From IMG/VR virus record IMGVR_UViG_3300049222_000322, positions 1-31,366 of that record: 31,366 nucleotides of DNA, one strand, 5' to 3'. Made by a program: the position numbers and the translations under genes. Under the pieces are notes generated by a model. It saw only the letters and a program-made list of their open reading frames with translations. It was not told where the DNA came from and searched no databases. Position 1 is the stretch's first letter; every line of letters begins with the position of its first letter. Below, one piece after another: positions 1-30,004 of the stretch. This stretch comes from a virus.

Positions 1-695
1 CAATCGAAGACTTAGCAATATTAACTGGGGCTACAGTCATTAATGAAGAGCTTGGCGATGATTTGGATCTGATCAATCCCGAAGTGTTAGGAGAAGCGGT
101 AAAATCCGTTACCTCTTCAAAGAACACTGTGATGCAGGTAGAGGCCGACCATGAGCAGCTTCTTGACCGTATTGAAAATGTACGTGAAAGAATTGGTTCT
201 GAAACAAACCCTTACTTTAGGGGTAAGCTCGAAGAGCGTTTATCAATGTTAACCGGTAAGGTTGGACTGATTTATGTAGGAGCTGACTCACAGGTCGAAC
301 TCAAAGAAAAGAAAGATAGAGTAGAAGATGCCATCTATGCAACGCAAGCCGCGTTAAAAGAAGGTATTGTAGCAGGGGGTGGCGCAGCATTATTGCATGC
401 ATCATTAAAGATTAAACATAAGAATGTTGGATACACTGCTCTTCTTAGAGCTCTTAGTTCTCCGTTTAATACCATTCTTGAAAACGCAAATATTGTGCTC
501 GACGAGCCGGTTGCACGTAAAGGTTATGGGATTGATGCTACTTCGGGGAAGAAAGTAAATATGGTTAAGGCTGGTATTATTGATCCGGTACTCGTAACCA
601 AAACCGCACTAAAGAATGCAGTTAGTGTAGCAACAACAATTATTTCTGCAGATTGTGTAATCTCTAATATGAGAATGGATGAAAGCGGTAAATAA
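1..695 (+). CDS. groEL: Phage chaperonin GroEL (Hsp60), C-terminal part, 5' truncated
   Basis: Group I chaperonin subunit, which would form the ATP-driven folding ring that works with GroES. The reading frame is open from base 3, so the gene starts before the window; 230 codons are visible. They match the second half of GroEL: an LTGATVI strand of the apical domain, then VGADSQVELKEKKDRVEDA, the intermediate/equatorial hinge VAGGGAALL, the nucleotide-contact stretch GYGIDATSG and the closing helix IIDPVLVTKTALKNAVSVA. The protein ends at MDESGK and lacks the GGM-rich tail of many bacterial GroELs. It overlaps groES by 17 bases, so the two are probably translated together. The surrounding phage genes make this a viral chaperonin rather than a host gene. 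The apical substrate-binding face is mostly outside the window. The identification is secure; its client proteins are unknown. Confidence 0.95.
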   Translation, partial: IEDLAILTGATVINEELGDDLDLINPEVLGEAVKSVTSSKNTVMQVEADHEQLLDRIENVRERIGSETNPYFRGKLEERLSMLTGKVGLIYVGADSQVELKEKKDRVEDAIYATQAALKEGIVAGGGAALLHASLKIKHKNVGYTALLRALSSPFNTILENANIVLDEPVARKGYGIDATSGKKVNMVKAGIIDPVLVTKTALKNAVSVATTIISADCVISNMRMDESGK

Positions 696-936
696 TTATA
701 TTATTATAAAGAAAATCAAGGAGGCAGTCAAAAAGGTTGCCGGCCTTGAATTAACTGAAAAGCAGAATAGTGACGTTAGGTATTTAAAAGCTGAAGTTAT
801 TAGCTGCGGACCATTAGTAATCGGTGTTGAAGTTGGTGATACAATTAGATACGATAAGCACGCTGGACATGGTATAGAATGGAATGAAGATTTATTTCAT
901 GTAATTACCGTAGGCGACGTTGTTATTGTAGAATGA
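679..936 (+). CDS. groES: Phage co-chaperonin GroES (Cpn10)
   Basis: An 85-residue co-chaperonin that would cap the GroEL ring. The Cpn10 pattern is visible: an N-terminal strand (NYIIIKKIKE), a mobile-loop segment around residues 14-30 with AGLEL in place of the usual GGIVL, the strand AEVISCG (38-44), the VGDTIRY turn (52-58) and the closing strand GDVVIVE. It is shorter than bacterial GroES (about 95 residues). The ATG at 679 lies inside the end of groEL, 17 bases before its stop codon, and the stop codon shares ATGA with the next gene. The order groEL-groES is reversed relative to the common bacterial groES-groEL operon. The altered mobile loop may tune it to the phage GroEL; that is inference. 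Confidence 0.88.
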   Translation: MKAVNNYIIIKKIKEAVKKVAGLELTEKQNSDVRYLKAEVISCGPLVIGVEVGDTIRYDKHAGHGIEWNEDLFHVITVGDVVIVE

Positions 937-1373: not shown

Positions 1374-1507
1374 AAAATCACTTAGAACCTATTACAAAGC
1401 GCGCATTAGCTAATTATAAGCCTGCTCCAGCAACTAGCGCTAAAGAAAAGCACGTAAACTTTACCAACGCAGGAGACTGTGGTTGCATGGGTAAGTGTGA
1501 CTGCTAA
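1370..1507 (+). CDS. 45-residue cysteine-tailed peptide
   Basis: A short gene read directly from the sequence: ATG at 1370, stop TAA at 1505-1507. Its start overlaps the preceding stop (ATGA) and its stop overlaps the next ATG (TAATG), which is the same coupling used by the surrounding real genes and is the main support for its reality. The first 30 residues are basic and proline/alanine-containing. The last nine residues, CGCMGKCDC, hold four cysteines (37, 39, 43, 45) in a CxCx3CxC pattern that could bind a metal ion. I do not recognise a family. It sits directly before a small HEXXH protein, so a metal-related partnership is a possible but unproven reading. Confidence 0.7.
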   Translation: MKNHLEPITKRALANYKPAPATSAKEKHVNFTNAGDCGCMGKCDC

Positions 1508-1854
1508 TGCCATTTAAGCTTAAGGATAAAAGTACCCTGTTCGGTTACGATAAGCAAACCTCAACATTTGATGCACCTGTATTTGAAAAAGATTTAGGCA
1601 GTCAAGTGATGGCGGAAGCTAATCGTGACGGAACTATTTTTATTAATAAAGGTTTATCGCCAAAGCAAAAGGAAGAAGCGGTAGAGCACGAAAAAGTGCA
1701 TTTAAATCAAATGCATCAAAATCGACTAGATTATACTGAAAATGAAGTAATCTGGAAACGAGATACTAAATCCCCAATGAAAGTTTATAAAAGACACGAG
1801 CTTAATGAAGGAGCTTCGGAACTAGAATGGGAAAACGAAGCATATAAATCATAA
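1507..1854 (+). CDS. Small HEXXH metallopeptidase-like protein
   Basis: 115 residues. Residues 61-65 read HEKVH, an HEXXH zinc-binding motif set in an amphipathic helix (KEEAVEHEKVHLNQM), preceded by a strand-like IFINKGLS segment as in small zincin folds. A C-terminal acidic stretch, LEWENEAYK (106-114), could supply the third ligand; I recall comparable endings in marine-phage homologues. A plausible role is proteolysis of a virion or host protein, or a non-catalytic zinc fold. The gene also carries SPMK at 89-92, a motif shared with neighbouring proteins. It starts on a TAATG overlap with the cysteine-tailed peptide. No signal peptide is visible, so it should act in the cytoplasm or in particles. 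Confidence 0.75.
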   Translation: MPFKLKDKSTLFGYDKQTSTFDAPVFEKDLGSQVMAEANRDGTIFINKGLSPKQKEEAVEHEKVHLNQMHQNRLDYTENEVIWKRDTKSPMKVYKRHELNEGASELEWENEAYKS

Positions 1855-18623: not shown

Positions 18624-19286
18624 ATGATACCTTTAGCTTTAGGACTTCAAGGCGCCATGGGGATTGCGAGTGGTATAATTGGCCATAAGAAAAGAAAGCA
18701 AGAGCAAAAAACTGCTCAAGCTGAATTTGAAGCATCTCGTGCACAATATATGAATCAGGATCTTTCTAACCCATATGCAAATATGGAAAACACTATGGAA
18801 GATCTTACGGTAAATACTCAGGCGGCAGACTTCACAGCTCAGCAGCAGGCTCAAGGCATGGCTAACATTATGGGCAATATGAGAGGTGCAGCGGGGGGAT
18901 CCGGCATAGCGGCTTTAGCTCAGTCACTTGCTGGGCAGCAATCTCAAAATGCGCAACAAGCTTCCGCTGCTATTGGTGCTCAAGAAGCTAGCAACCAGGC
19001 AGCCGCGCGGCAAATGGCTGGAGAATTGCAAATGGCAGAGCGCAAAGGAGACGTGATGTCTCGTAACATGAAGCGTGAACAATACAGTACTGAATTAGGA
19101 ATGGCTATGGATCGTAAAGGTCAGGCGGATTTAGCTAGGCAAGAAGCTACCCAATCATTAATGAGTGGTGTCGGTAACTTAGCAATGGGTGGTGTAGGAT
19201 TTATGGCAAACCCACAACGCGCGTCAGCAGACAGCATATTTGGCCAGCTATTAGGCATGCCGGGTGAAGCTGCTACTGAAGAATAA
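18624..19286 (+). CDS. Internal virion/ejection protein, Gln/Ala-rich
   Basis: 220 residues. A short hydrophobic glycine-rich start (PLALGLQGAMGIASGIIG, 2-19) is followed by basic KKRKQEQK, then a glutamine/alanine-rich helical region with AALAQSLAGQQSQNAQQ (about 94-110) and a second glycine-rich hydrophobic patch (SLMSGVGNLAMGGVGFMAN, about 175-194). This resembles the T7 gp14-type small ejection proteins that insert into the host membrane to start the DNA channel. It stands before two further candidate internal proteins, matching the T7 gp14-gp15-gp16 order. Function is inferred from composition and order. Confidence 0.7.
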   Translation: MIPLALGLQGAMGIASGIIGHKKRKQEQKTAQAEFEASRAQYMNQDLSNPYANMENTMEDLTVNTQAADFTAQQQAQGMANIMGNMRGAAGGSGIAALAQSLAGQQSQNAQQASAAIGAQEASNQAAARQMAGELQMAERKGDVMSRNMKREQYSTELGMAMDRKGQADLARQEATQSLMSGVGNLAMGGVGFMANPQRASADSIFGQLLGMPGEAATEE

Positions 19287-19299
19287 TAGATTTAACATT

Positions 19300-20415
19300 A
19301 TGGCAGATAAAAGTTTAATAGACGCGAATAGAAGAATGCTACAAAGCGGTCGTAGACCTGTGGTAGAGTTTAATGCACCACAGGGCGATAACTTGTTTGA
19401 GGGGCATCGTGCCATTAACGCTGCGAGAAGAAACAAAATAGCAAATATAAACGCGAGTGTTTCCACCTCAATGGGTAAGATGAAGTCAGATGTAGACTTA
19501 ACCGCTTATTCTAAGGAAGAGCAAAAGAATATTGGTAAGTTTTTAACTGGGCAACGCTCTATATATGCTAACTCAGCAAATGCTTTAGCCAAGATTAGCG
19601 ATACGTCATCTCCTGAATACCAGTACCACGTTGATGTAATGAATGGCATTAACAATAGTTTTACCAACTTAAAAAATCAATTAGATTCTTATAAAGAAAA
19701 TAAAATTGAGTTTGCTGAAGGTATAAGAACAGGTTTGTTTTCTGAAGGTAACGACGACATGCAGTACTCAAATGCTGCAATGATGTACGGATTGATCGAC
19801 GGAGAAAAAACTAATGTACCATTTGAAATTGCTGAAAACGGTGACTTAGGGTTTAATATGGGTGGCGAGTATGTCAGATATAACGATTTTGAACAGCCGT
19901 TTCCGAAAGATTACAAAGTAGCATCGAGTATATTAAGCCAATCAGCTGACTTGTATAAAAATCACACCTTGCTACAGGGGCCGCAAAAAGACATGCTCAG
20001 ATTAAGTCTTATGGCTTCTTTGCGTGATCCTAATACTATTAAGTCATTAGTTTCTGATTTTGAATCTGACGGTTTAAACCTTTCAGACATTCCGCTAGAT
20101 GATATAGAAGTTGCTAGAAATATGATTGCTGACCGTATAATGAATAGTTATACTGATGTAGCAGCACAAGGTAAAGCTGATTACGATGCACGCAACCCGA
20201 GTAGATCAGGCGGCGGCAGAAGTGGTAGCAGCGGAAGTGGCGGTAAAGACTACACTGAAAGATGGGCGGATATAGATAACAATCAAAATGTAGGTGTAGA
20301 ATATACTATTAGCGGTCATAAAATAAAACGCGACACAGAAAATCCTGATATATATTATGTAGACGGAATAGCTTTTCCTAATAGAGAGCTAGCTTACGAC
20401 GCGGTGACTAACTAA
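19300..20415 (+). CDS. Internal virion protein (T7 gp15-position)
   Basis: 371 residues from the ATG at 19300; an upstream GTG at 19264 would overlap the preceding gene and adds an unlikely leader. The protein is mostly helical with few motifs: ADKSLIDANRRMLQSGRRP, central DGEKTNVPFEIAENGDLGF, and a low-complexity linker RSGGGRSGSSGSGGK (about 305-320) joined to a final small domain (GHKIKRDTENPDIYYVDGIAF) that resembles a short beta module. It lies between the small ejection protein and the giant protein. A structural role inside the head or ejection tube is inferred from this location; I do not recognise a named family. Confidence 0.62.
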   Translation: MADKSLIDANRRMLQSGRRPVVEFNAPQGDNLFEGHRAINAARRNKIANINASVSTSMGKMKSDVDLTAYSKEEQKNIGKFLTGQRSIYANSANALAKISDTSSPEYQYHVDVMNGINNSFTNLKNQLDSYKENKIEFAEGIRTGLFSEGNDDMQYSNAAMMYGLIDGEKTNVPFEIAENGDLGFNMGGEYVRYNDFEQPFPKDYKVASSILSQSADLYKNHTLLQGPQKDMLRLSLMASLRDPNTIKSLVSDFESDGLNLSDIPLDDIEVARNMIADRIMNSYTDVAAQGKADYDARNPSRSGGGRSGSSGSGGKDYTERWADIDNNQNVGVEYTISGHKIKRDTENPDIYYVDGIAFPNRELAYDAVTN

Positions 20416-20440
20416 CTTACAATTAATCCAATATAAAAAT

Positions 20441-23400
20441 ATGGATCTTAATAAATTTAGCCCTGAAAAATTGCAACAAATTGCGGAACTAAACGGTTTA
20501 ACCGTTGAAGAGCTATTAGCAAATAATAATGAGGGAAAGCAGAACGACTTGATGGAAACCGACCCGCCAACGAGTCAGAACACAGAAACGTCCGCTGGGG
20601 AATCCAGTTCGGGCGATATTTCTTTGGGGTCACCCGTAATATCTATTGAAGACTTTTTTGACGAAGACGGAAAATATCTTGATGAAGAAGATGTTTCTAC
20701 TGCTCTAAACTCAAAACTAGCTAAGTATGGCGTAACTGTTGAAAGCGACATTTTAGGTTCAGATGCTGTTAAATTCCGTAATATGGAAGACAAGTATAAA
20801 GAATCCGCTTCTTATTCCTATAAAGGTTTACTTGGTGCTAAGTCTAAAGATGAGCTCGCTAAAATGGTGGCGCTCATGAACAGAGATTTGTTTACAGTAG
20901 GTGAAGAAAACTACCTAAGCAAGGTGCAAGAGCGCTCAACAGGTTTGCATGAAGAATATAAGCAAAGTGTAAAAGCTGATGACATTCCGGAAAATGAATC
21001 AATTGATCTTGCAAAAGAAACAAAACTTGATAGGTTCGAAGCGTTTGAAAAAGCAGGTAAAGCTGGTAATGAAATTCTTTTTGATAGTCAAGAAGATAAA
21101 GATGATTATGAAGAATGGATTAATACCGGCGTTGTTCCAGAACCTAGAGAAGAAGAAATACGCGGCTTAGAGCAAACTATAAAATCTAAACAAAGAAACG
21201 ACAGATCAGATGAATTTGTATTTGATTTAAATCAAGTACAAAGAAATGATATTTTTGTATTAGAGCAAATTAGAGTTGAAGATATAAGTAAAAAAAGACA
21301 GGCTTTCCCAGCGGATCTTGATAACTTTAATAAAAATAAGGCAACTTACGAAGCGGAAGTTGAAAGATATAATGCAGGAGGTGTTTACAATGAAAGCACT
21401 GAAGCAAGACTACAAGACATTCAAAAAGGCTTACTACTTGATTATTCAAATTTAAATGCAATTGCTGAAGAATTACAAGATTCTGAAATTGCGCCTGACG
21501 GATTGCAGCAGCTAAGCGCTTATTATGGCATGGGTGCTGGTTTGATTAATACCAGTAAATCTATTGGTCTTGGAATATTAAAGAGTATTGCCGAGCTTGG
21601 TAATTTTGTTGCTGCAGGCCAATATGTTGCTGCGGTGGCCCCTTCACTTGATTCTGAAGAAGAGTTAGATGAAGCTTTTTTTGATATACTAGAGCAATCA
21701 AACGCACGAACTGCCAAAGCTTTTCTTGGTGCAAATTTAGACTTAGAAAAAGAAGCTGCCAAATTAGTTCAACGCCCAGAGTTTTCAGAAATAGAAAATT
21801 TTAAAGATGCTAGAAGATGGGGAGCGGGTGTTGTAGCGCAGGGACTTCCTTCAATGGCCGTTAGCCGCGCAGGAGCAGTAGCTATGCCAGCTTATTTTCT
21901 TATGGGTGCTGGGGGTAAAAGCTTAGAGCGTGATAAAGAAAAATATTATGCTTATGAGCAGCTAACTGCTAATACCAAAATATTAGAAGACGGAGGTTAT
22001 ACTGATAAAGCCGGTAATTTTATAGCAATTGATGAATTCGAAGCCCGCAAACTAGAGGCACAAAATACAGAAAGTAAAAGGTTGCTAGATATACCCATAG
22101 GCAAAGAATACACCTCTATGGCTTTAGCGGGCGCTACTGAAGTTGTGTTTGAAGGATTGTTTGATAAAATGCTTACTGACGGATTGTTAAGAGCGCTAAA
22201 AGAAGCTCCAACTGAAGGCATGAAGTCTGCAGCTGGAAATTTTATTAAGTCAGCATTAAAAAACATGCCTGCTGAAGGAGGTTCCGAAGGCGCCACCCAG
22301 TTTGCAAACAATTATTTTGACCAGGTATTATTAGGGAAGGATGTTAATCTTTTTGAAGGTGTTACTGAAGCAACCGCTGGTGGTGCACTTATGGGAGCAG
22401 GCTTTTCAAGTGTTCCCTCTTTAGCAGGCTTTAATCAAGCCATAGTAAATGAGCTTGCAACAAGACAAGAAAAAAGAGAATTAAAAGAGCTAGAATCTAA
22501 AATAGAGTCTTTATCTGGTGTTGGTGCGTTAGATCCTTTAGATCCTTCAAAGCGTCGTAAAAAACAAGACGCAGAAACAGAAGCTTTAATACAAGAGCTA
22601 ACATTAGAAAGAGATGATATAACGCGCAATATATCTAGAAGACTTGGTACTGATTTGTCTATTGCTGATGCTAAAGCTGTTGGTGAAATAAATAGAGAAA
22701 TTAGAAAGCTAAACGAAAAGGCTTATAAAATTGGTTATGGCAATACTTCTAACAAGCAAAAGCTTAAGTCGCAGGAAATAATTTCACAAAAGCTAGATAA
22801 TCTTTTACAACAAAGAGAGGATATATTAACAGATAAAGCTCGCAGTAAGGCTGCAAAAAAACATAATGCTTCTTTAAAAATACATCAAGACGCATTAGAT
22901 GGATACCGACAAATATCTGTAGCTATTGCAACAGACAAAGGGCGTCAGCAACGTGCAAAGTTTTTTCAACAACCAAGAAAACTAAAGCAAGAAGCATTTA
23001 AGATTGCTAAAGAGCAACTTGAATCGGAGGGAGGAGACACAAGAAGAAGCTCTGTTGAGCATCGTGCTTCTGAAAACTATAGAATTGAAGAAAACAAAAG
23101 AGAACTAAAGGCAAGTGCAGAAAATGTAAAAGCTTTTGCAGAACAAAGTGGTTTAAGCGAACAATTATCTATAGATGCTACAGATTCTTTAGAAGAAGCA
23201 ATTGCTTGGGTTGAAAAAAATGTGGCCGATAAAGACAAAAAAGAAACCATTGAAAAGCTAAAAAGCGGACAGCTTAACGCGGTTATTGCGGATGGCGGCT
23301 TTATGATTAACATGACTAACGCTGCAAAAAACAATGCAGTAGGGGCGTTCGCTCACGAGCTATTACATGCTGTAACACGATCAAAGCTTAAAGACCAGAA

Positions 23401-26400
23401 ATCTTTAAATGAGGCTGGCGGAAAGTTATTAGAATACTTACAACAAGCACACCCTGAACTAGCGGCAAAAGTATCGCTCGCTACGCAAGGTTATTTTGAA
23501 GAAAACAGGGAAGAGGCTTTTGAAGAACTTATGAATGCTCTTAGCGATGCATTAGCGGAAGGCTATCAATACAATGAAAGCTTACTGCAAACCGTTAAAA
23601 GATTTATAAACACCGCTTTAAAAGGAACTGATTTAGAAATAAGCTCTGAGGGGCAAGATATTTTTTACTTTATTAGGGACTTTAATAAAAAAGCGCATGT
23701 AGGTAAGAAAGGTAAGAACGCTAAGTATAAGCTTTCATCGTTTTCTGATGACGATAAAACAAAAATGTCTGTGTCTGTCCAGGCAGATAGAGCTAAGCAA
23801 GTTTTAGAGAAGGTAAGCGCAAACATGGACTTTTTTGACCCTAACTCCCCGCTTATTGCTCGTGTTCTTCCGGGAATGATTCAAGCGCAACTAGCCAAGC
23901 TTTCTGCTAAAGGCCTGCAGTTTGACATGGACGAAGCTAATAGCGACATTATTTATAGACTATATTCCAATGGCGATATAAATAAGTTTGACGGGCGCGG
24001 TACACTATACGGTTATATAAATGGTCGTATTAGTTTCCGTATTAAAGATATGCTTAAAGCTTCCGGTGAAGGTAAAAACGACATTGTTGAAGACTTTAAC
24101 CAGAGCGACATAGAAGACCTTAAAGGTGCGGCGGCTGATGTTACTACTACAGAACAAATAGAAGAGCGTGCGGCAAACGAAAAGCCTGAATACAGACCGC
24201 TTTTAAACAGCCGTATTGCTAAGCCTGAGCTTATTGAAAGTATATTAGCTAAAATACCTAGAATAGTAGGAACGCTAAAAAGTCGTATTGACGCGCCCAT
24301 ATCTAAAAACACTACAGTTACCCCTTTAGTAAATGAGCTAAGGTTAGCTTTAGGTAAACAGGTGGACATTGACTTGAAAAAAGCAATGGGCGGCAAAAAA
24401 GATGGCGTACTTAGAAGATTCTTAACGGACAATAAGAAAGCTATTCTTGAAAACATGACCACCACTTACTTAATGACCGCATTCCCGGCCGCGGTACAAA
24501 AGCAGGTAAACGGCGTGTTTACTAGTGATTGGAAAGGTAAAAAAATTGATAGAGAAACTACTAATACAGACAAAGCAGGTAGAACATCTGGTGCTGAATT
24601 AGTCCGAAGATTACCTAATGCTTCAATAAAAATAGATGACAAAACCTTTTTGTCTTTTATTCTTGATGAAAAAGGTAATCCATTGCGTGGTAAAAAAGAA
24701 TCTCTCGCTAAAGCAATTGGGGAAGAGTTAGCTATAGAAATTATTAATCAGGAAATGCAAGATCCTGATAGCCCAATTCGTCAAGCTTTTGAGGCTAATC
24801 AAGAACGTTTAGGAACTGAAATTGTAGACAACTATGTAGCTAAGCTTAAGCTTGACTTTGAAAGAGGCAATGTTAAGTACTCTATGGCTAATGGCTTTAC
24901 ACAAACGGAGCTGCAGTCAGCTGTAAACACATCGGCTTTAGATATTATTTTAAATAAAATAGTAAAATCTAATAAAGTTTTTCCAAATGATTATGCACTG
25001 GACAATGAAAACTTTAGTCCTAGCGTAATTAAACAGTTTAAAAAAGAGGCTAAAGAGCAAGGAGTAAATATTGATAATGTTGACTTTAAAAAGGTTTTTT
25101 GGCATACTTCAGAAATACTTAATAGTCCTGCTATTAATGACAAGTCACTCAAGGACGCTAGATTTTTAAATTTAATTCCGCTCGCTTCTAAAGAAGTCCA
25201 AAAAGGGCTAGAAAATTACATGTCAGTAAGCCGTTTGAAAAGCAAAGGCGAACTTAAAGATTTAAAAGCACACAGAGAATCTACTGGATTAATAAAAAGC
25301 AGAATTAACATTAATGAGTTAAGGGTATTTAATTCACAAGCGTTTGATAATAGTATTCAACCAGAAGCTATAGTCGCTGGTTCAAAATTAAATAAGCAAG
25401 ATCTTAATAATGTAACCAAATACAATACAGAAGAAACAAGCGCTAAAGCGTTGTTTGAGTTACAAAAAAGAGGTGATCTTAACAATACCTTACAATCTAC
25501 CGATACGGTTGGATTGCTTCAAGCGCAAAACTCGGCAAATAAAAAGTTATCTAGTAGAATTGCAGGAGAATTTATTTTAGGGGTTCAAACTGGCGAAATT
25601 AGTTTAATGGATTTTGCAAGGTTTTTACAGGAGGATAACAGCAGAAAACGTGGGTTTGGACCATTAGGGCAATTAACAATTATTGATGGTAATATAAATG
25701 CTGATTCAAACCAATATATAGAGCATATGTATCCTCATGTGCAATTTTTGTTCGAATTGCTAGAAATAGCCGCTAACCCTAATCTATCTACTCACAATGG
25801 TGAGCTAAGTAAAGAAACTATTAACGCTATAGATAAGGCCTACGACAAAAATATATTAATGTCTACGGACCAATTAACGGCAACACCTGTTCTTGATAAA
25901 GTTTTAGGCCCTACTAACGCTAGCAGCATAGAAAGATTAAGACTATACGGAGAAGCTGCGCGCGACAATACATATTTTGCGGCGGTTAATGAAGAAGGAA
26001 ACTTAATAACTTTGACAGAACACTTTGAAAGTTTAACAGAAGCCGAAGCTATTACGGAACAGTTAGCTATAAACTTTGATGCTGTTAATTCTTTTCAAGG
26101 GTGGCTGGAAGCGTCTACTAAGTTTTCTATGTCAACTCCTGTAGCTGTGTTTATGGTTGGCGGGCCAGGCTCTGGTAAATCTAGTACTTTAAAATCTTTA
26201 GGCTTAATTGATAAAGGTTTTAGGTTGGTTAATCAAGACCCTTATCTAGAAAAGTACATTAAAGATGCTGGTCTTGCAAGCGATGAAAAAACTTATAACA
26301 AAGAAGAAAGATCATTACGAGCTAAGCTAGGTTGGAAAGCTAGAAAAGCTGCGGAAGAAGATTTAGCTAATAACACTGCCGCAAGAGAAAGCATGGTGAT

Positions 26401-28903
26401 TGATGGTACTGGCGCTTCATATAAAGCTACAACTAAAAAAATGAAAGCTTTAGAAGCAGCCGGGTTTGAGATACACATGATCCATGTTAATACCAGCAAA
26501 GATGTTGCGGTGCAAAGAAACCGTGCTCGGGCTGAAAGATCGTTAGCGGATTTTATAGTGACTAAAACATGGGACAGCGTACAAGAGAGCGCTGCGCAAT
26601 ATAAAGAAGATTATGCAGGTCGCTTCTATGAGGTTAATACCGACAACATTTCTTACGGTGAAGCCTTACCTGAAGCATTTGTAAATCAAGTAACTACAGG
26701 GCTGGAAGCGTCTGGTGTTAAATTTAGCCAGGGATTAAGCGAAGAGCTTAATGGAATGATTGAGCGAACTAAAGGAGTAGCGGCTGATAAAATCTATTCG
26801 AAAGCTCAGGCTCGTATGATGGGTGAGGGTAAGGGTAAATACAGATTATTCGTACCCGCGTCTGCCGAAGACTTTAGAGGTTTAACTTCGTATACATTTG
26901 CAGGTAAAGGAAAACAAGGTGAAGCTGATCAAAAGTTTATTGAAGATAATTTAATCACACCATATACTAGAGGCATCGCAATGATCGAAGCCATTAAACA
27001 GCAGGTTCGTCGTGAACTTAATGCTTTAAGAAAAGCAGATAAAAAGTTGTTTAAAATGCTGGGTAAGAAAATTACAAATAGCGATTACACTTACGACCAC
27101 GCATTAAGAGTATATATGTGGACTCAGCAAGGCATTGAAATACCTAATATGAATAAAGATGATATTAGGTTTTTGATCAACGCTATTAATGCAATGCCTC
27201 AACTTATTGAGCTTGGCAACGCAATGCAACTTGTATCTAGACAAGACACATGGATGGAACCAGGTGATCATTGGCTATCTCGCACTCTAGTTTCCGATTT
27301 GAACGGAATGACCGAAAGAGTAGGTAGAAAAAAATATTTGCAGGAATTTATTGAAAACTCTCAAGCAATATTTAGTCCAGAAAATTTAAATAAAATAGAA
27401 GCTATTTACGGAACACGTCATAGAGAGGCTATAGAAGATTCTTTATTTGCAATGACCAACGGTACAAACCGTACTACAGGACCAAATAAACAAGTTAATT
27501 CGTGGCTAAACTGGGTAAACAACTCTACTGGGGCTATCATGTTCTTTAACCGCCGTTCTGCAATATTACAAACTCTTTCGTCTACCAACTTTATTAATTG
27601 GTCTGATAACAATCCTTTAAAAGTAGCAGCAGCTTTTGCTAACCAACCCCAATATTGGTCTGATTTTGCAATGATATTTAATTCCGATAAGTTAAAACAA
27701 CGTAGATCGGGGCTGCAAACAGATGTAAACCAAGCAGAAATTGCTAATGAGGCTAGAGGAGCAAAAAATAAAGCAGGTGCTGTAATTGCTTACTTGTTAA
27801 AAATTGGTTTTACACCTACTCAGATTGCAGATAGCTTTGCTATTGCTGCTGGTGGTTCAAGCTTCTATAGAAACAGAGTTAATACATATCTTAAAGATGG
27901 TATGAAACAAGATGCTGCAGAAAAGCTTGCTTTTGAAGACTTTAGTAAAACAGCTGATGAAGCACAGCAATCTTCTGATCCGTACTTGGTTTCTCAAGAG
28001 CAGCGCAGTGTTTTAGGTAGATTGGTATTAGCATTCCAAAATACGCCAATGCAGTATACTCGCTTGATGAAGAAATCAATGCAAGATCTTGCCAATGGCA
28101 GGGGTGATGCTAAAACACATATATCTAAGATTATTTATTATGGCGCAGTACAAAACTTTATATTTTCTGCATTACAAAGCGCCTTGTTTGCGGTTATACC
28201 AGGGTTTGATGACGAAGAAGAGTCTGAGATGACAGAAAAAGAGTTGGAAAAACTTGAACGTAAAAATGACCAAAGAACGTTGCGCATTATTAATAGCATG
28301 ACAGATTCTGTTTTAAAGGGTAGTGGTGTTAGAGGCGCTGTGATTGCAACACTTAAGAATACTATTACAGAGTATTTTAAACAAGAAGAAAAAGGATTTA
28401 CTGCAGATCACACTTATACTATACTACAGGCATTAAGTTTATCTCCGCCTATTGGTTCAAAAGCTAGAAAACTTTACTCAGCTATCCAAACCAAAAAGTT
28501 TGAAAGAGATGTATTAACAGCAAGAGGTTTTGATGTTACGGCTGATGGTAAATTAAATTTAGGTCCTGCTTATTCTATTATAGGCAGCCTTGCATCAGCT
28601 ACCGTAAACCTACCACTTGATCGTGTTGTTGATGAGCTTAATTCAATAGTTGAAGCATTAGATTCTCGAAATACAACTTGGCAACGTATAGCATTAGCAC
28701 TTGGCTGGAAGACTTGGGATGTTGGTGCTAAAAATGAAGAAAACGATCTTATTAAAACAGAAGCTAAAGCAAAGCGTAAAGAAGAGGGTAAAGCTAAGGC
28801 TAAAGAAACACGGAGCGTAAATAAGAAAAAGAAAGAAGCTACAGAAAGAGAAAAAAAGCTAGAGGATATGTATAGAAGATTTCCTGAAAGCCGACCTAAA
28901 TAA
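20441..28903 (+). CDS. Giant polyvalent internal virion protein: metallopeptidase, sigma-like and zeta-kinase domains
   Basis: 2820 residues, the largest gene here, in the position of T7 gp16. In order: acidic N-terminus with LDEEDVSTALNSKLAKYGV; hydrophobic glycine-rich segments at 361-402 and about 463-490; EGGSEGATQ at 612-620, a pattern seen in polyvalent phage proteins; long charged coiled coils (about 670-950); HELLH zinc site (H972, E973, H976) with candidate third ligand in EEAFEE (1024-1029); a sigma-70 region-2-like stretch at 1138-1207 (NKFDGRGTLYGYINGRI); a zeta-toxin-like P-loop kinase with GGPGSGKSS (1907-1915), NQDPYLEKYI (1931-1940), IDGTGA (1987-1992) and lid arginines (2026-2030); then a C-terminal helical module (2361-2730) with a hydrophobic helix at 2572-2589 and a basic tail. 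Likely packaged and injected; enzyme activities are predicted only. Confidence 0.85.
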   Translation: MDLNKFSPEKLQQIAELNGLTVEELLANNNEGKQNDLMETDPPTSQNTETSAGESSSGDISLGSPVISIEDFFDEDGKYLDEEDVSTALNSKLAKYGVTVESDILGSDAVKFRNMEDKYKESASYSYKGLLGAKSKDELAKMVALMNRDLFTVGEENYLSKVQERSTGLHEEYKQSVKADDIPENESIDLAKETKLDRFEAFEKAGKAGNEILFDSQEDKDDYEEWINTGVVPEPREEEIRGLEQTIKSKQRNDRSDEFVFDLNQVQRNDIFVLEQIRVEDISKKRQAFPADLDNFNKNKATYEAEVERYNAGGVYNESTEARLQDIQKGLLLDYSNLNAIAEELQDSEIAPDGLQQLSAYYGMGAGLINTSKSIGLGILKSIAELGNFVAAGQYVAAVAPSLDSEEELDEAFFDILEQSNARTAKAFLGANLDLEKEAAKLVQRPEFSEIENFKDARRWGAGVVAQGLPSMAVSRAGAVAMPAYFLMGAGGKSLERDKEKYYAYEQLTANTKILEDGGYTDKAGNFIAIDEFEARKLEAQNTESKRLLDIPIGKEYTSMALAGATEVVFEGLFDKMLTDGLLRALKEAPTEGMKSAAGNFIKSALKNMPAEGGSEGATQFANNYFDQVLLGKDVNLFEGVTEATAGGALMGAGFSSVPSLAGFNQAIVNELATRQEKRELKELESKIESLSGVGALDPLDPSKRRKKQDAETEALIQELTLERDDITRNISRRLGTDLSIADAKAVGEINREIRKLNEKAYKIGYGNTSNKQKLKSQEIISQKLDNLLQQREDILTDKARSKAAKKHNASLKIHQDALDGYRQISVAIATDKGRQQRAKFFQQPRKLKQEAFKIAKEQLESEGGDTRRSSVEHRASENYRIEENKRELKASAENVKAFAEQSGLSEQLSIDATDSLEEAIAWVEKNVADKDKKETIEKLKSGQLNAVIADGGFMINMTNAAKNNAVGAFAHELLHAVTRSKLKDQKSLNEAGGKLLEYLQQAHPELAAKVSLATQGYFEENREEAFEELMNALSDALAEGYQYNESLLQTVKRFINTALKGTDLEISSEGQDIFYFIRDFNKKAHVGKKGKNAKYKLSSFSDDDKTKMSVSVQADRAKQVLEKVSANMDFFDPNSPLIARVLPGMIQAQLAKLSAKGLQFDMDEANSDIIYRLYSNGDINKFDGRGTLYGYINGRISFRIKDMLKASGEGKNDIVEDFNQSDIEDLKGAAADVTTTEQIEERAANEKPEYRPLLNSRIAKPELIESILAKIPRIVGTLKSRIDAPISKNTTVTPLVNELRLALGKQVDIDLKKAMGGKKDGVLRRFLTDNKKAILENMTTTYLMTAFPAAVQKQVNGVFTSDWKGKKIDRETTNTDKAGRTSGAELVRRLPNASIKIDDKTFLSFILDEKGNPLRGKKESLAKAIGEELAIEIINQEMQDPDSPIRQAFEANQERLGTEIVDNYVAKLKLDFERGNVKYSMANGFTQTELQSAVNTSALDIILNKIVKSNKVFPNDYALDNENFSPSVIKQFKKEAKEQGVNIDNVDFKKVFWHTSEILNSPAINDKSLKDARFLNLIPLASKEVQKGLENYMSVSRLKSKGELKDLKAHRESTGLIKSRININELRVFNSQAFDNSIQPEAIVAGSKLNKQDLNNVTKYNTEETSAKALFELQKRGDLNNTLQSTDTVGLLQAQNSANKKLSSRIAGEFILGVQTGEISLMDFARFLQEDNSRKRGFGPLGQLTIIDGNINADSNQYIEHMYPHVQFLFELLEIAANPNLSTHNGELSKETINAIDKAYDKNILMSTDQLTATPVLDKVLGPTNASSIERLRLYGEAARDNTYFAAVNEEGNLITLTEHFESLTEAEAITEQLAINFDAVNSFQGWLEASTKFSMSTPVAVFMVGGPGSGKSSTLKSLGLIDKGFRLVNQDPYLEKYIKDAGLASDEKTYNKEERSLRAKLGWKARKAAEEDLANNTAARESMVIDGTGASYKATTKKMKALEAAGFEIHMIHVNTSKDVAVQRNRARAERSLADFIVTKTWDSVQESAAQYKEDYAGRFYEVNTDNISYGEALPEAFVNQVTTGLEASGVKFSQGLSEELNGMIERTKGVAADKIYSKAQARMMGEGKGKYRLFVPASAEDFRGLTSYTFAGKGKQGEADQKFIEDNLITPYTRGIAMIEAIKQQVRRELNALRKADKKLFKMLGKKITNSDYTYDHALRVYMWTQQGIEIPNMNKDDIRFLINAINAMPQLIELGNAMQLVSRQDTWMEPGDHWLSRTLVSDLNGMTERVGRKKYLQEFIENSQAIFSPENLNKIEAIYGTRHREAIEDSLFAMTNGTNRTTGPNKQVNSWLNWVNNSTGAIMFFNRRSAILQTLSSTNFINWSDNNPLKVAAAFANQPQYWSDFAMIFNSDKLKQRRSGLQTDVNQAEIANEARGAKNKAGAVIAYLLKIGFTPTQIADSFAIAAGGSSFYRNRVNTYLKDGMKQDAAEKLAFEDFSKTADEAQQSSDPYLVSQEQRSVLGRLVLAFQNTPMQYTRLMKKSMQDLANGRGDAKTHISKIIYYGAVQNFIFSALQSALFAVIPGFDDEEESEMTEKELEKLERKNDQRTLRIINSMTDSVLKGSGVRGAVIATLKNTITEYFKQEEKGFTADHTYTILQALSLSPPIGSKARKLYSAIQTKKFERDVLTARGFDVTADGKLNLGPAYSIIGSLASATVNLPLDRVVDELNSIVEALDSRNTTWQRIALALGWKTWDVGAKNEENDLIKTEAKAKRKEEGKAKAKETRSVNKKKKEATEREKKLEDMYRRFPESRPK

Positions 28904-28912
28904 AAATAAATA

Positions 28913-29374
28913 ATGAAATTATCAGATAACTTAAGCGTTGCTGAGGTAATTAAATCAACCACAGCAAAAAGATGCGGCATCAATAATGAGCCTACAATAG
29001 AGCATTTGGAAAATTTAAAGGCAATTGCACTAAACATTTTCCAACCTACGCGTGATTATTTTAACAAACCCATTTGCGTAACTTCCGGATACCGCAGTGA
29101 AGCGCTTAATGAACGTATCGGTGGAAGTAAAACTTCTCAGCATTCTAAGGGCCAAGCTCTTGATCTCGACGCCCAAGCATTTGGCGGCTTAACCAACAAC
29201 CAACTATTTAATTATATTTCTGAGCATACAGACTTTGACCAGCTAATTTGGGAATTCGGAAACGAAGAAGAACCGGATTGGGTGCATGTTTCTTATGTTA
29301 GCTACCGCAAAAACCGTGGAGAAAGATTAATCGCCTATAAAAAAGAAGGCAAAACAAAATATAAGCATTACTAA
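28913..29374 (+). CDS. M15-family peptidoglycan peptidase (endolysin)
   Basis: 153 residues, the Peptidase_M15 fold used by phage lysins and D,D-carboxypeptidases that cleave peptidoglycan peptides. The hallmark SxHxxGxAxD is present as SQHSKGQALD (75-84), giving zinc ligands H77 and D84; the third ligand H125 is in DWVHVSY (122-128). VTSGYRSEALNERIGG (56-71) is the typical loop upstream. No signal peptide, so it needs a holin or other route to the periplasm. The gene follows the giant protein by nine bases and precedes a small membrane protein, a normal lysis pair. Endolysin is the most likely role; virion-associated lysin is an alternative. Confidence 0.88.
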   Translation: MKLSDNLSVAEVIKSTTAKRCGINNEPTIEHLENLKAIALNIFQPTRDYFNKPICVTSGYRSEALNERIGGSKTSQHSKGQALDLDAQAFGGLTNNQLFNYISEHTDFDQLIWEFGNEEEPDWVHVSYVSYRKNRGERLIAYKKEGKTKYKHY

Positions 29375-29653: not shown

Positions 29654-30004
29654 ATGAAAAAGACAATACTTTTGTTAATCGCATTTTCACTATGTTCTTT
29701 TGCTTCTAGCACTATTAGCAAACGGGGCATAGTTTTAGTGCATTACAACGCGTCCTTCAACTCTGCAAATAATTATGTGGACGTTGTTAAAATTAAAGAC
29801 GCTAAAATATTTAAAGCGTCTATTGACGGTAACGCTACTCTTAAACAAGATGAGCGTATAAGGTCAGTGCCTACATTAGTATTGTATAAAAACGGTAAAG
29901 AGATTACAAGATGGGAAGCAGGCATTAATTTGTCGCTTAGCCATATAGATTATCGTGAGATACAAAAAGAAGTTGATCAGCTAACAGGGGCTAATAAATT
30001 TTAG
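29654..30004 (+). CDS. Exported thioredoxin-fold protein lacking the CxxC site
   Basis: 116 residues with an N-terminal signal peptide (MKKTILLLIAFSLCSFASS). The remainder fits a thioredoxin fold: strand GIVLVHYNAS (25-34), helix, strand KIFKASIDGNA, then the cis-proline loop SVPTLVLYKNGKEI (71-84, P73) and a final helix. At the place of the usual WCGPC motif the sequence is ASFNSANN, so no redox-active cysteines remain; the only cysteine lies inside the signal peptide. It is therefore likely to act as a binding or chaperone-type thioredoxin-like domain in the periplasm. The lipobox rule is not met (leucine before cysteine). It sits between holin-like and barrel-like genes, an envelope cluster. 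Confidence 0.75.
   Translation: MKKTILLLIAFSLCSFASSTISKRGIVLVHYNASFNSANNYVDVVKIKDAKIFKASIDGNATLKQDERIRSVPTLVLYKNGKEITRWEAGINLSLSHIDYREIQKEVDQLTGANKF

What the first reader, a model, noticed from the sequence alone, without database searches (positions are those of the whole stretch)
20441..28903. 2820-residue virion protein that combines a zincin, a sigma-like stretch and a zeta-toxin-like kinase
One uninterrupted frame in the T7 gp16 position contains HELLH (972-976), a full P-loop kinase signature (GGPGSGKSS 1907-1915, NQD 1931-1933, IDGTG 1987-1991, lid arginines 2026-2030) and membrane-like segments at both ends. Zeta kinases are known to phosphorylate UDP-N-acetylglucosamine and poison wall synthesis; here no epsilon antitoxin is adjacent. 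If packaged, the protein would deliver several enzymes into the host together with the DNA.
Basis: partly seen in the sequence, partly recalled or inferred. Interest (0 to 1): 0.75.

Follow-up and report, generated by a model that had tools for sequence, protein, structure and literature searches.

The report
Giant cysteine-free phage ejection protein
This phage gene encodes a 2820-residue protein of a kind that phages carry in the virus particle and push into the host together with their DNA; it joins a probable self-cutting protease, a domain shaped like part of a bacterial transcription factor, and an exchangeable enzyme slot that here holds a kinase looking more like a nucleic-acid repair enzyme than like the cell-wall toxin first suggested.

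Summary
The frame and motifs are real and at the stated places. The protein is the third gene of a T7-like 14-15-16 cassette in a podovirus related to Flavobacterium elemo and Cellulophaga phi38:1/phi18:3 phages. Its N-terminal ~800 residues are homologous to the syntenic giants of those phages, recorded as virion proteins by MS/MS. It has no cysteine (94 relatives: 9 in 260,792 residues), like T7 gp15/gp16 and N4 gp50-52, so ejection into the host is likely. The zincin is supported: H972, E973, H976 and E1029 are invariant in 91 relatives. The sigma-like stretch is supported by fold: the 39 best structural matches of residues ~1100-1215 are all sigma factors, though Z is only 5.5-7.4. The kinase is real, but the UDP-sugar zeta-toxin reading is not favoured: its fold is nearer to polynucleotide kinases (Z 16.8 against 14.8), and it sits in an exchangeable slot that holds a HAD phosphatase of PNK-phosphatase type in 55 of 95 relatives; in one the kinase lies inside the HAD. 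A new variant of the 'polyvalent protein' class (Iyer 2017), best read as an ejected, self-processing carrier with swappable end-processing enzymes.

The parts
20441..28903 (+). ORF, 2820 aa, no cysteine: giant ejection/polyvalent protein
20441..23290 (+). N-terminal virion module (residues ~1-950), fast-evolving, homologous to syntenic MS/MS-identified virion proteins
   Evidence: HMM of relatives: elemo gp18 1e-67, phi38:1 gp101 3e-48, phi18:3 gp123 1e-39, no other hit among 332 sequences incl. shuffled decoys
23354..23368 (+). HELLH (972-976) of the zincin domain
   Evidence: H972, E973, H976 invariant in 91 relatives
23525..23527 (+). E1029, probable third zinc ligand
   Evidence: invariant in 91 relatives; lies in a predicted helix C-terminal to the HExxH helix
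23738..24085 (+). sigma domain-2-like helical domain (residues ~1100-1215)
   Evidence: VIA-align: top 39 rows all sigma factors, Z 5.5-7.4; NCBIfam sigma70-ECF only E 0.13
24233..24886 (+). most conserved middle block (residues ~1265-1482), unknown fold and function
   Evidence: no family match
24908..26713 (+). exchangeable enzyme slot (residues 1490-2091)
   Evidence: census of 95 relatives and tree
26126..26665 (+). P-loop kinase domain (residues ~1896-2075); P-loop 26159-26185, NQD 26231-26239, IDGTG 26399-26413, RNRAR 26516-26530
   Evidence: Pfam AAA_33/Zeta_toxin, fold, alignment
26714..28900 (+). conserved C-terminal block (residues 2092-2820), at least 314 relatives in IMG/VR, unknown function
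28142..28201 (+). single strong hydrophobic segment (2568-2587)
18624..19286 (+). 220-aa protein in T7 gp14-like position, no cysteine
   Evidence: position and cysteine content only
19264..20415 (+). ~371-383-aa protein in T7 gp15-like position, no cysteine
   Evidence: position and cysteine content only

Best explanation
A packaged, ejected polyvalent protein. (1) It is built into the virion with two smaller cysteine-free partners encoded just upstream and is threaded through the short tail with or before the DNA (inferred from MS/MS-identified homologues, gene order and absence of cysteine). (2) The zincin cuts the chain, before or after transfer, to free the functional domains (inferred, after the P1 DdrB precedent cited by Iyer 2017). 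(3) The sigma domain-2-like part probably touches host RNA polymerase to favour early transcription from the incoming genome, or to hold back host transcription (inferred from fold only). (4) The slot before the C-terminal block carries an exchangeable enzyme: a HAD phosphatase in most relatives, a P-loop kinase here. Both are of the kind found in polynucleotide kinase-phosphatases, so the likeliest job is to process nucleic-acid ends, for instance to repair RNA or DNA cut by host defences. My odds: virion/ejection ~0.85; active zincin ~0.85; sigma-2 fold ~0.75; kinase acting on nucleic-acid ends ~0.4, on a sugar-nucleotide or other small molecule ~0.4.
For: The syntenic last structural gene is annotated from experimental MS/MS in phi40:1 gp101 and phi18:3 gp123, and the window's N-terminus is homologous to phi38:1 gp101 (same locus and length as phi40:1 gp101) and phi18:3 gp123. 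Cysteine: window 0/2820; 94 relatives 9 in 260,792 against 150 in 30,524 for other long ORFs of the same loci; T7 gp15 and gp16 0, N4 gp50/51/52 0; the three-protein cassette has 1 cysteine in all across five sequenced relatives. Zincin. Sigma fold. Kinase. Slot: 7 kinase only, 1 kinase inside HAD, 54 HAD, 33 neither; HAD presence changes at least 10 times and the kinase was gained twice on the C-terminal tree. The HAD matches PHROG 415 'polynucleotide kinase' in 12 of 16 members (best 3.3e-7) and, weakly, Pfam HAD/DUF2608.
Against: No proteomics or biochemistry on this phage; it is a metagenomic fragment. MS/MS is taken from record annotation. Sigma Z-scores are middling for a helical bundle and Foldseek gave no significant hit; no sigma region 4 was identified. 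The zincin fold was not matched separately. The kinase lacks the arginine three residues after the catalytic aspartate that T4 Pnk has (R38; here L1936), so it is not an ordinary PNK. In the window clade the kinase has no HAD partner in the same chain.
Confidence: 0.6

Rival explanations
1. The kinase is a true zeta-type toxin: injected, it phosphorylates UDP-N-acetylglucosamine and weakens wall synthesis to help DNA entry or lysis, as Iyer 2017 proposed for zeta-like kinases in polyvalent proteins.
For: Pfam Zeta_toxin 35.9 bits against a cut-off of 22.3; zeta 1gvn_B at E 2.5e-6 by profile; zeta ranks first by Foldseek E; IDGTG resembles zeta's EGTG in the alignment; proposal in PMC5512222 section 25.
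Against: AAA_33 scores higher (46.4 bits); VIA Z 16.8 for bacterial polynucleotide kinase against 14.8 for zeta, with rmsd 2.9 against 3.6; the profile alignment with zeta stops before the RN..R lid that aligns with T4 Pnk; the nearest free-standing relatives are single genes of myoviruses with no named toxin role; the slot partner is a PNK-phosphatase-type HAD.
Confidence: 0.25
2. The enzyme domains are degenerate and the protein is only a structural core or pore protein like T7 gp16; zincin and kinase are relics.
For: T7 gp15/gp16 are structural ejection proteins with the same gene order and lack of cysteine.
Against: All four zincin residues are invariant while the surrounding N-terminal half drifts to 10-40% identity; kinase catalytic residues are invariant down to 28% identity; the kinase has been acquired twice.
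Confidence: 0.1
3. Effector without ejection: a large late protein that stays in the producing cell and acts there, for example in assembly or lysis.
For: An M15 peptidase (endolysin-like) gene follows directly.
Against: Homologues are virion proteins by MS/MS; absence of cysteine fits transit.
Confidence: 0.07

Closest known systems
Polyvalent proteins (Iyer et al. 2017, PMC5512222)
   Same: Giant multidomain phage protein with zincin, unrelated enzymes and virion-gene neighbourhood; zeta-like kinases and ADP-ribosyltransferases are named as polyvalent domains there.
   Different: The paper's main text does not mention a sigma-like domain, a HAD domain or any phosphatase; the window protein matches no LPD or PolyVal Pfam model.
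N4 virion RNA polymerase gp50 with gp51/gp52
   Same: Giant, no cysteine, HExxH (residue 2228), one of three ejected proteins (PMC12633501, PMC2784036).
   Different: No RNA polymerase domain found here; instead a sigma domain-2-like part and a kinase slot; no sequence match.
T7 gp14-gp15-gp16 internal core
   Same: Order after the tail genes and lack of cysteine in the two large members.
   Different: No lytic transglycosylase detected in the window protein; twice as long.
Syntenic giants of Cellulophaga phi38:1/phi40:1 gp101, phi18:3 gp123, Flavobacterium elemo gp18
   Same: Homologous N-terminal module, same locus, virion proteins, no cysteine.
   Different: The zincin-sigma-mid-block profile finds nothing in them; only elemo has a weak match to the zincin region.
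Polynucleotide kinase-phosphatase (T4 Pnkp, Clostridium thermocellum Pnkp)
   Same: Kinase fold, RN..R lid, and HAD partner in relatives.
   Different: Arginine after the catalytic Asp is missing; in the window clade there is no HAD in the chain; one relative nests the kinase inside the HAD.
Zeta toxin / PezT
   Same: P-loop, catalytic Asp, DGTG-like loop.
   Different: Lower fold score, lid does not align by sequence, no antitoxin gene recognised next to it.

Membership tests
Polyvalent proteins | Several unrelated activities in one giant chain | tested here: met
   zincin, sigma-like fold, kinase
Polyvalent proteins | Zincin-like metallopeptidase with HExxH and a downstream Glu | tested here: met
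   invariant H972, E973, H976, E1029 in 91 relatives; activity not tested
Polyvalent proteins | Gene among late virion genes | tested here: met
Polyvalent proteins | Injected with the DNA | not testable with these tools
   indirect only: MS/MS homologues and lack of cysteine
Polyvalent proteins | Match to a Pfam LPD/PolyVal model | tested here: inconclusive
   none in the window protein; ART-PolyVal 3.7e-5 in relative L082, below the curated cut-off
Zeta toxin | Pfam Zeta_toxin above curated score | tested here: met
   35.9 against 22.3 bits
Zeta toxin | Homology over the whole catalytic domain including the lid | tested here: inconclusive
   profile alignment ends at position 123 before the lid; fold match spans it at Z 14.8
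Zeta toxin | Adjacent epsilon-type antitoxin | tested here: inconclusive
   neighbours are an M15 peptidase and a 383-aa gene in a virion-gene position; no specific antitoxin model was run
Zeta toxin | Phosphorylates UDP-GlcNAc | not testable with these tools
   assay needed
Polynucleotide kinase | Walker A, catalytic Asp, RN..R lid | tested here: met
   K1913, S1914, D1933, R2026-N2027...R2030
Polynucleotide kinase | Arg three residues after the catalytic Asp (T4 R38) | tested here: not met
   NQDPYL aligned with T4 NRDDYR
Polynucleotide kinase | 5'-OH kinase activity | not testable with these tools
   assay needed
Sigma-70 domain 2 | Fold of regions 1.2-2.4 | tested here: inconclusive
   39 of 39 best rows are sigma factors but Z 5.5-7.4; Foldseek not significant
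Sigma-70 domain 2 | Significant sequence match | tested here: inconclusive
   NCBIfam sigma70-ECF E 0.13 over residues 1158-1241
Podoviral ejection proteins | Last of three core genes after the tail genes, cysteine-free | tested here: met

The most novel reading that the evidence does not exclude
A widespread family of Bacteroidota podovirus ejection proteins delivers a sigma domain-2-like module that captures host RNA polymerase for the incoming genome, in place of a virion RNA polymerase, together with a swappable counter-defence slot in which PNK-type kinase, HAD phosphatase and ADP-ribosyltransferase domains are exchanged or nested inside one another.
Probability: 0.25. Interest if true: 0.8.

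Novelty: new variant of a known kind. Interest (0 to 1): 0.55.

Why it matters
It ties an unannotated giant protein with hundreds of environmental relatives to the virion proteins of the phi38:1/phi18:3/elemo group. It shows where in the chain payload enzymes are exchanged, and it gives a simple sequence mark (no cysteine) that supports ejection. If the sigma-like part binds host RNA polymerase, it would be a route for phages without a virion polymerase to start transcription at once; if the slot enzymes mend nucleic-acid ends, it would be a virion-borne answer to nuclease defences. Isolated relatives exist, so packaging and processing can be tested directly.

Tried and rejected
Sequence search of the whole protein against PDB and of the zincin/mid-block and C-terminal profiles: nothing. 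Pfam/PHROG scans of mid-block and C-terminal block: only chance matches. Plasmid search and scan of bacterial genomes for the C-terminal block: no relative found, so no prophage or host evidence. Idea that the kinase is a fixed core part: rejected (8 of 95 relatives). Distant DNA search of the two upstream genes: nothing. Literature searches for a sigma-like domain in an injected virion protein and for cysteine-free ejection proteins as a general mark found no paper beyond the N4-like polymerase remarks; the library holds open-licence papers only.

Full report
What is there. The window is an IMG/VR record of 31,366 bases, classed linear, probably a fragment. Its terminase, portal and tail genes match Flavobacterium elemo phages, Cellulophaga phi38:1 (Pervagoviridae), phi18:3 (Pachyviridae), Calle, Tenacibaculum Gundel, Maribacter Panino and the Manatee Spring genome MW202828. 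Gene order after the tail genes is 220 aa, ~380 aa, 2820 aa, as in T7 gp14-gp15-gp16.

Is it a virion protein? The same locus in isolated relatives holds a giant last gene. The records of phi18:3 gp123 and phi40:1 gp101 say 'experimental MS/MS proteomics'. A profile of the N-terminal part of the window protein and its relatives, run against 332 sequences (ORFs of six related genomes plus shuffled decoys), hits exactly three: elemo gp18 (1e-67), phi38:1 gp101 (3e-48) and phi18:3 gp123 (1e-39). The C-terminal profile finds the giant structural protein of Gundel (4e-8).

An unexpected mark. The protein has no cysteine. Of 94 giant relatives 88 have none: 9 cysteines in 260,792 residues, against 150 in 30,524 residues of other long ORFs in the same loci. 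All three proteins of the cassette are cysteine-free in phi38:1, phi18:3, elemo and Panino; the Manatee giant has one. Known ejected proteins behave alike: T7 gp15 and gp16, N4 gp50, gp51 and gp52 have none, although T7 gp14 has one. The lack of cysteine in N4-like virion RNA polymerases has been noted and ascribed to passage through tail and periplasm (PMC2784036, PMC3715699). The mark was noticed after the fact, but it is independent of the homology to the MS/MS proteins.

Architecture. Scans of IMG/VR with profiles gave at least 314 relatives of the C-terminal block, 82 of the middle block, and only 8 of the kinase. In 94 non-redundant ORFs the order is constant: variable N-terminus, HExxH, middle block, slot of 111-941 residues, C-terminal block. 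The two without HExxH (L054, L021) begin at the middle block, so the part that would carry it is missing from those ORFs.

Zincin. In 91 relatives only 12 columns of residues 926-1495 are invariant, four of them H972, E973, H976 and E1029: the complete HExxH...E set in a region that otherwise drifts to 10-50% identity. The model has the HExxH helix and a following helix with E1029.

Sigma-like part. An AlphaFold model of residues 926-1495 (mean pLDDT 81) was compared with the PDB. Foldseek gave nothing significant, but realignment by VIA-align puts 39 sigma factors in the first 39 rows, over residues ~1100-1215, with Z 5.5-7.4 and rmsd down to 2.1 over 66-70 residues. By itself such a Z is middling for helices; the uniform identity of the rows is what persuades. 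NCBIfam's ECF sigma model touches the same residues at E 0.13. No region 4 was identified. The block after it (1265-1482) is the most conserved of all and unassigned.

Kinase. Residues ~1896-2075 match Pfam AAA_33 and Zeta_toxin. By profile against PDB, T4 Pnk (1.8e-6) and zeta (2.5e-6) tie, but only the T4 Pnk alignment runs on through the RN..R lid. By fold, Clostridium thermocellum Pnkp kinase leads (Z 16.8, rmsd 2.9 over 164), then seryl-tRNA kinase (16.1), zeta (14.8) and T4 Pnk (14.2). Foldseek E-values put zeta first by a hair. P-loop, D1933, DGTG and the lid arginines are invariant down to 28% identity, including free-standing genes of marine myoviruses. The arginine after the catalytic Asp of T4 Pnk is missing. 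It is therefore a PNK/zeta-like kinase of its own branch, substrate unknown.

The slot. The kinase belongs to a minority. Of 95 slots (window included) 7 carry the kinase alone, 54 a HAD phosphatase, 1 both, 33 neither. The HAD has DFDDT, LTARP, K and DD motifs, matches PHROG 415 'polynucleotide kinase' in 12 of 16 members and Pfam HAD/DUF2608 weakly. In L039 the kinase lies inside the HAD: HAD model positions 2-29 precede it and 26-171 follow it. In L082 the same insertion site holds an ART-PolyVal-like domain (3.7e-5, below the curated cut-off). On a tree of the C-terminal block, HAD presence needs at least 10 changes and the kinase two (window clade, fully supported, and L039). Kinase and HAD phosphatase trading places, or nested, is the pairing of polynucleotide kinase-phosphatases, which is why end-processing is placed above UDP-sugar phosphorylation, without excluding the latter.

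Comparison with what is known. Iyer et al. 2017 defined polyvalent proteins, with zincin as the commonest domain and zeta-like kinases among the payloads. The present family fits that class in design. What the paper's main text does not have is the sigma-like part, the HAD slot with nested insertions, and this family's middle and C-terminal blocks. Hence 'new variant of a known kind'.

Shown: frame, motifs, conservation, homology to annotated virion proteins, lack of cysteine, domain exchange. Inferred: ejection of this protein, self-processing, contact with RNA polymerase, substrate of the kinase.

Noticed in passing
window 18624-28903: Three consecutive proteins (220, ~371-383 and 2820 aa) contain no cysteine; the same cassette is cysteine-free in phi38:1, phi18:3, elemo and Panino, with one cysteine in the Manatee giant. 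Could serve as a mark for ejected proteins.
   Followed up: yes
L039:6526-9003: P-loop kinase inserted inside a HAD phosphatase domain, between motif I and motif II.
   Followed up: partly
L082:6916-9003, L172:10963-13482: Insertions of ~138 and ~184 residues at the same HAD site; that of L082 resembles ADP-ribosyltransferase (ART-PolyVal), that of L172 (begins near YYHGTS) has no family match.
   Followed up: partly
window 3-936: Phage-encoded chaperonin: the end of a GroEL-like ORF (by eye and by annotated groEL in relatives) and a GroES-like (Cpn10) gene.
   Followed up: no
window 1507-1854: 115-aa ORF with HEKVH, weakly like phage metallo-proteases (PHROG 87, 2.5e-4).
   Followed up: no
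window 28913-29374 and 29654-30004: M15 peptidase (endolysin-like) directly after the giant gene, then a thioredoxin-like gene with an apparent signal peptide.
   Followed up: no
window residues 1265-1482 (24233-24886): The most conserved block of the whole family has no recognisable fold or family.
   Followed up: partly
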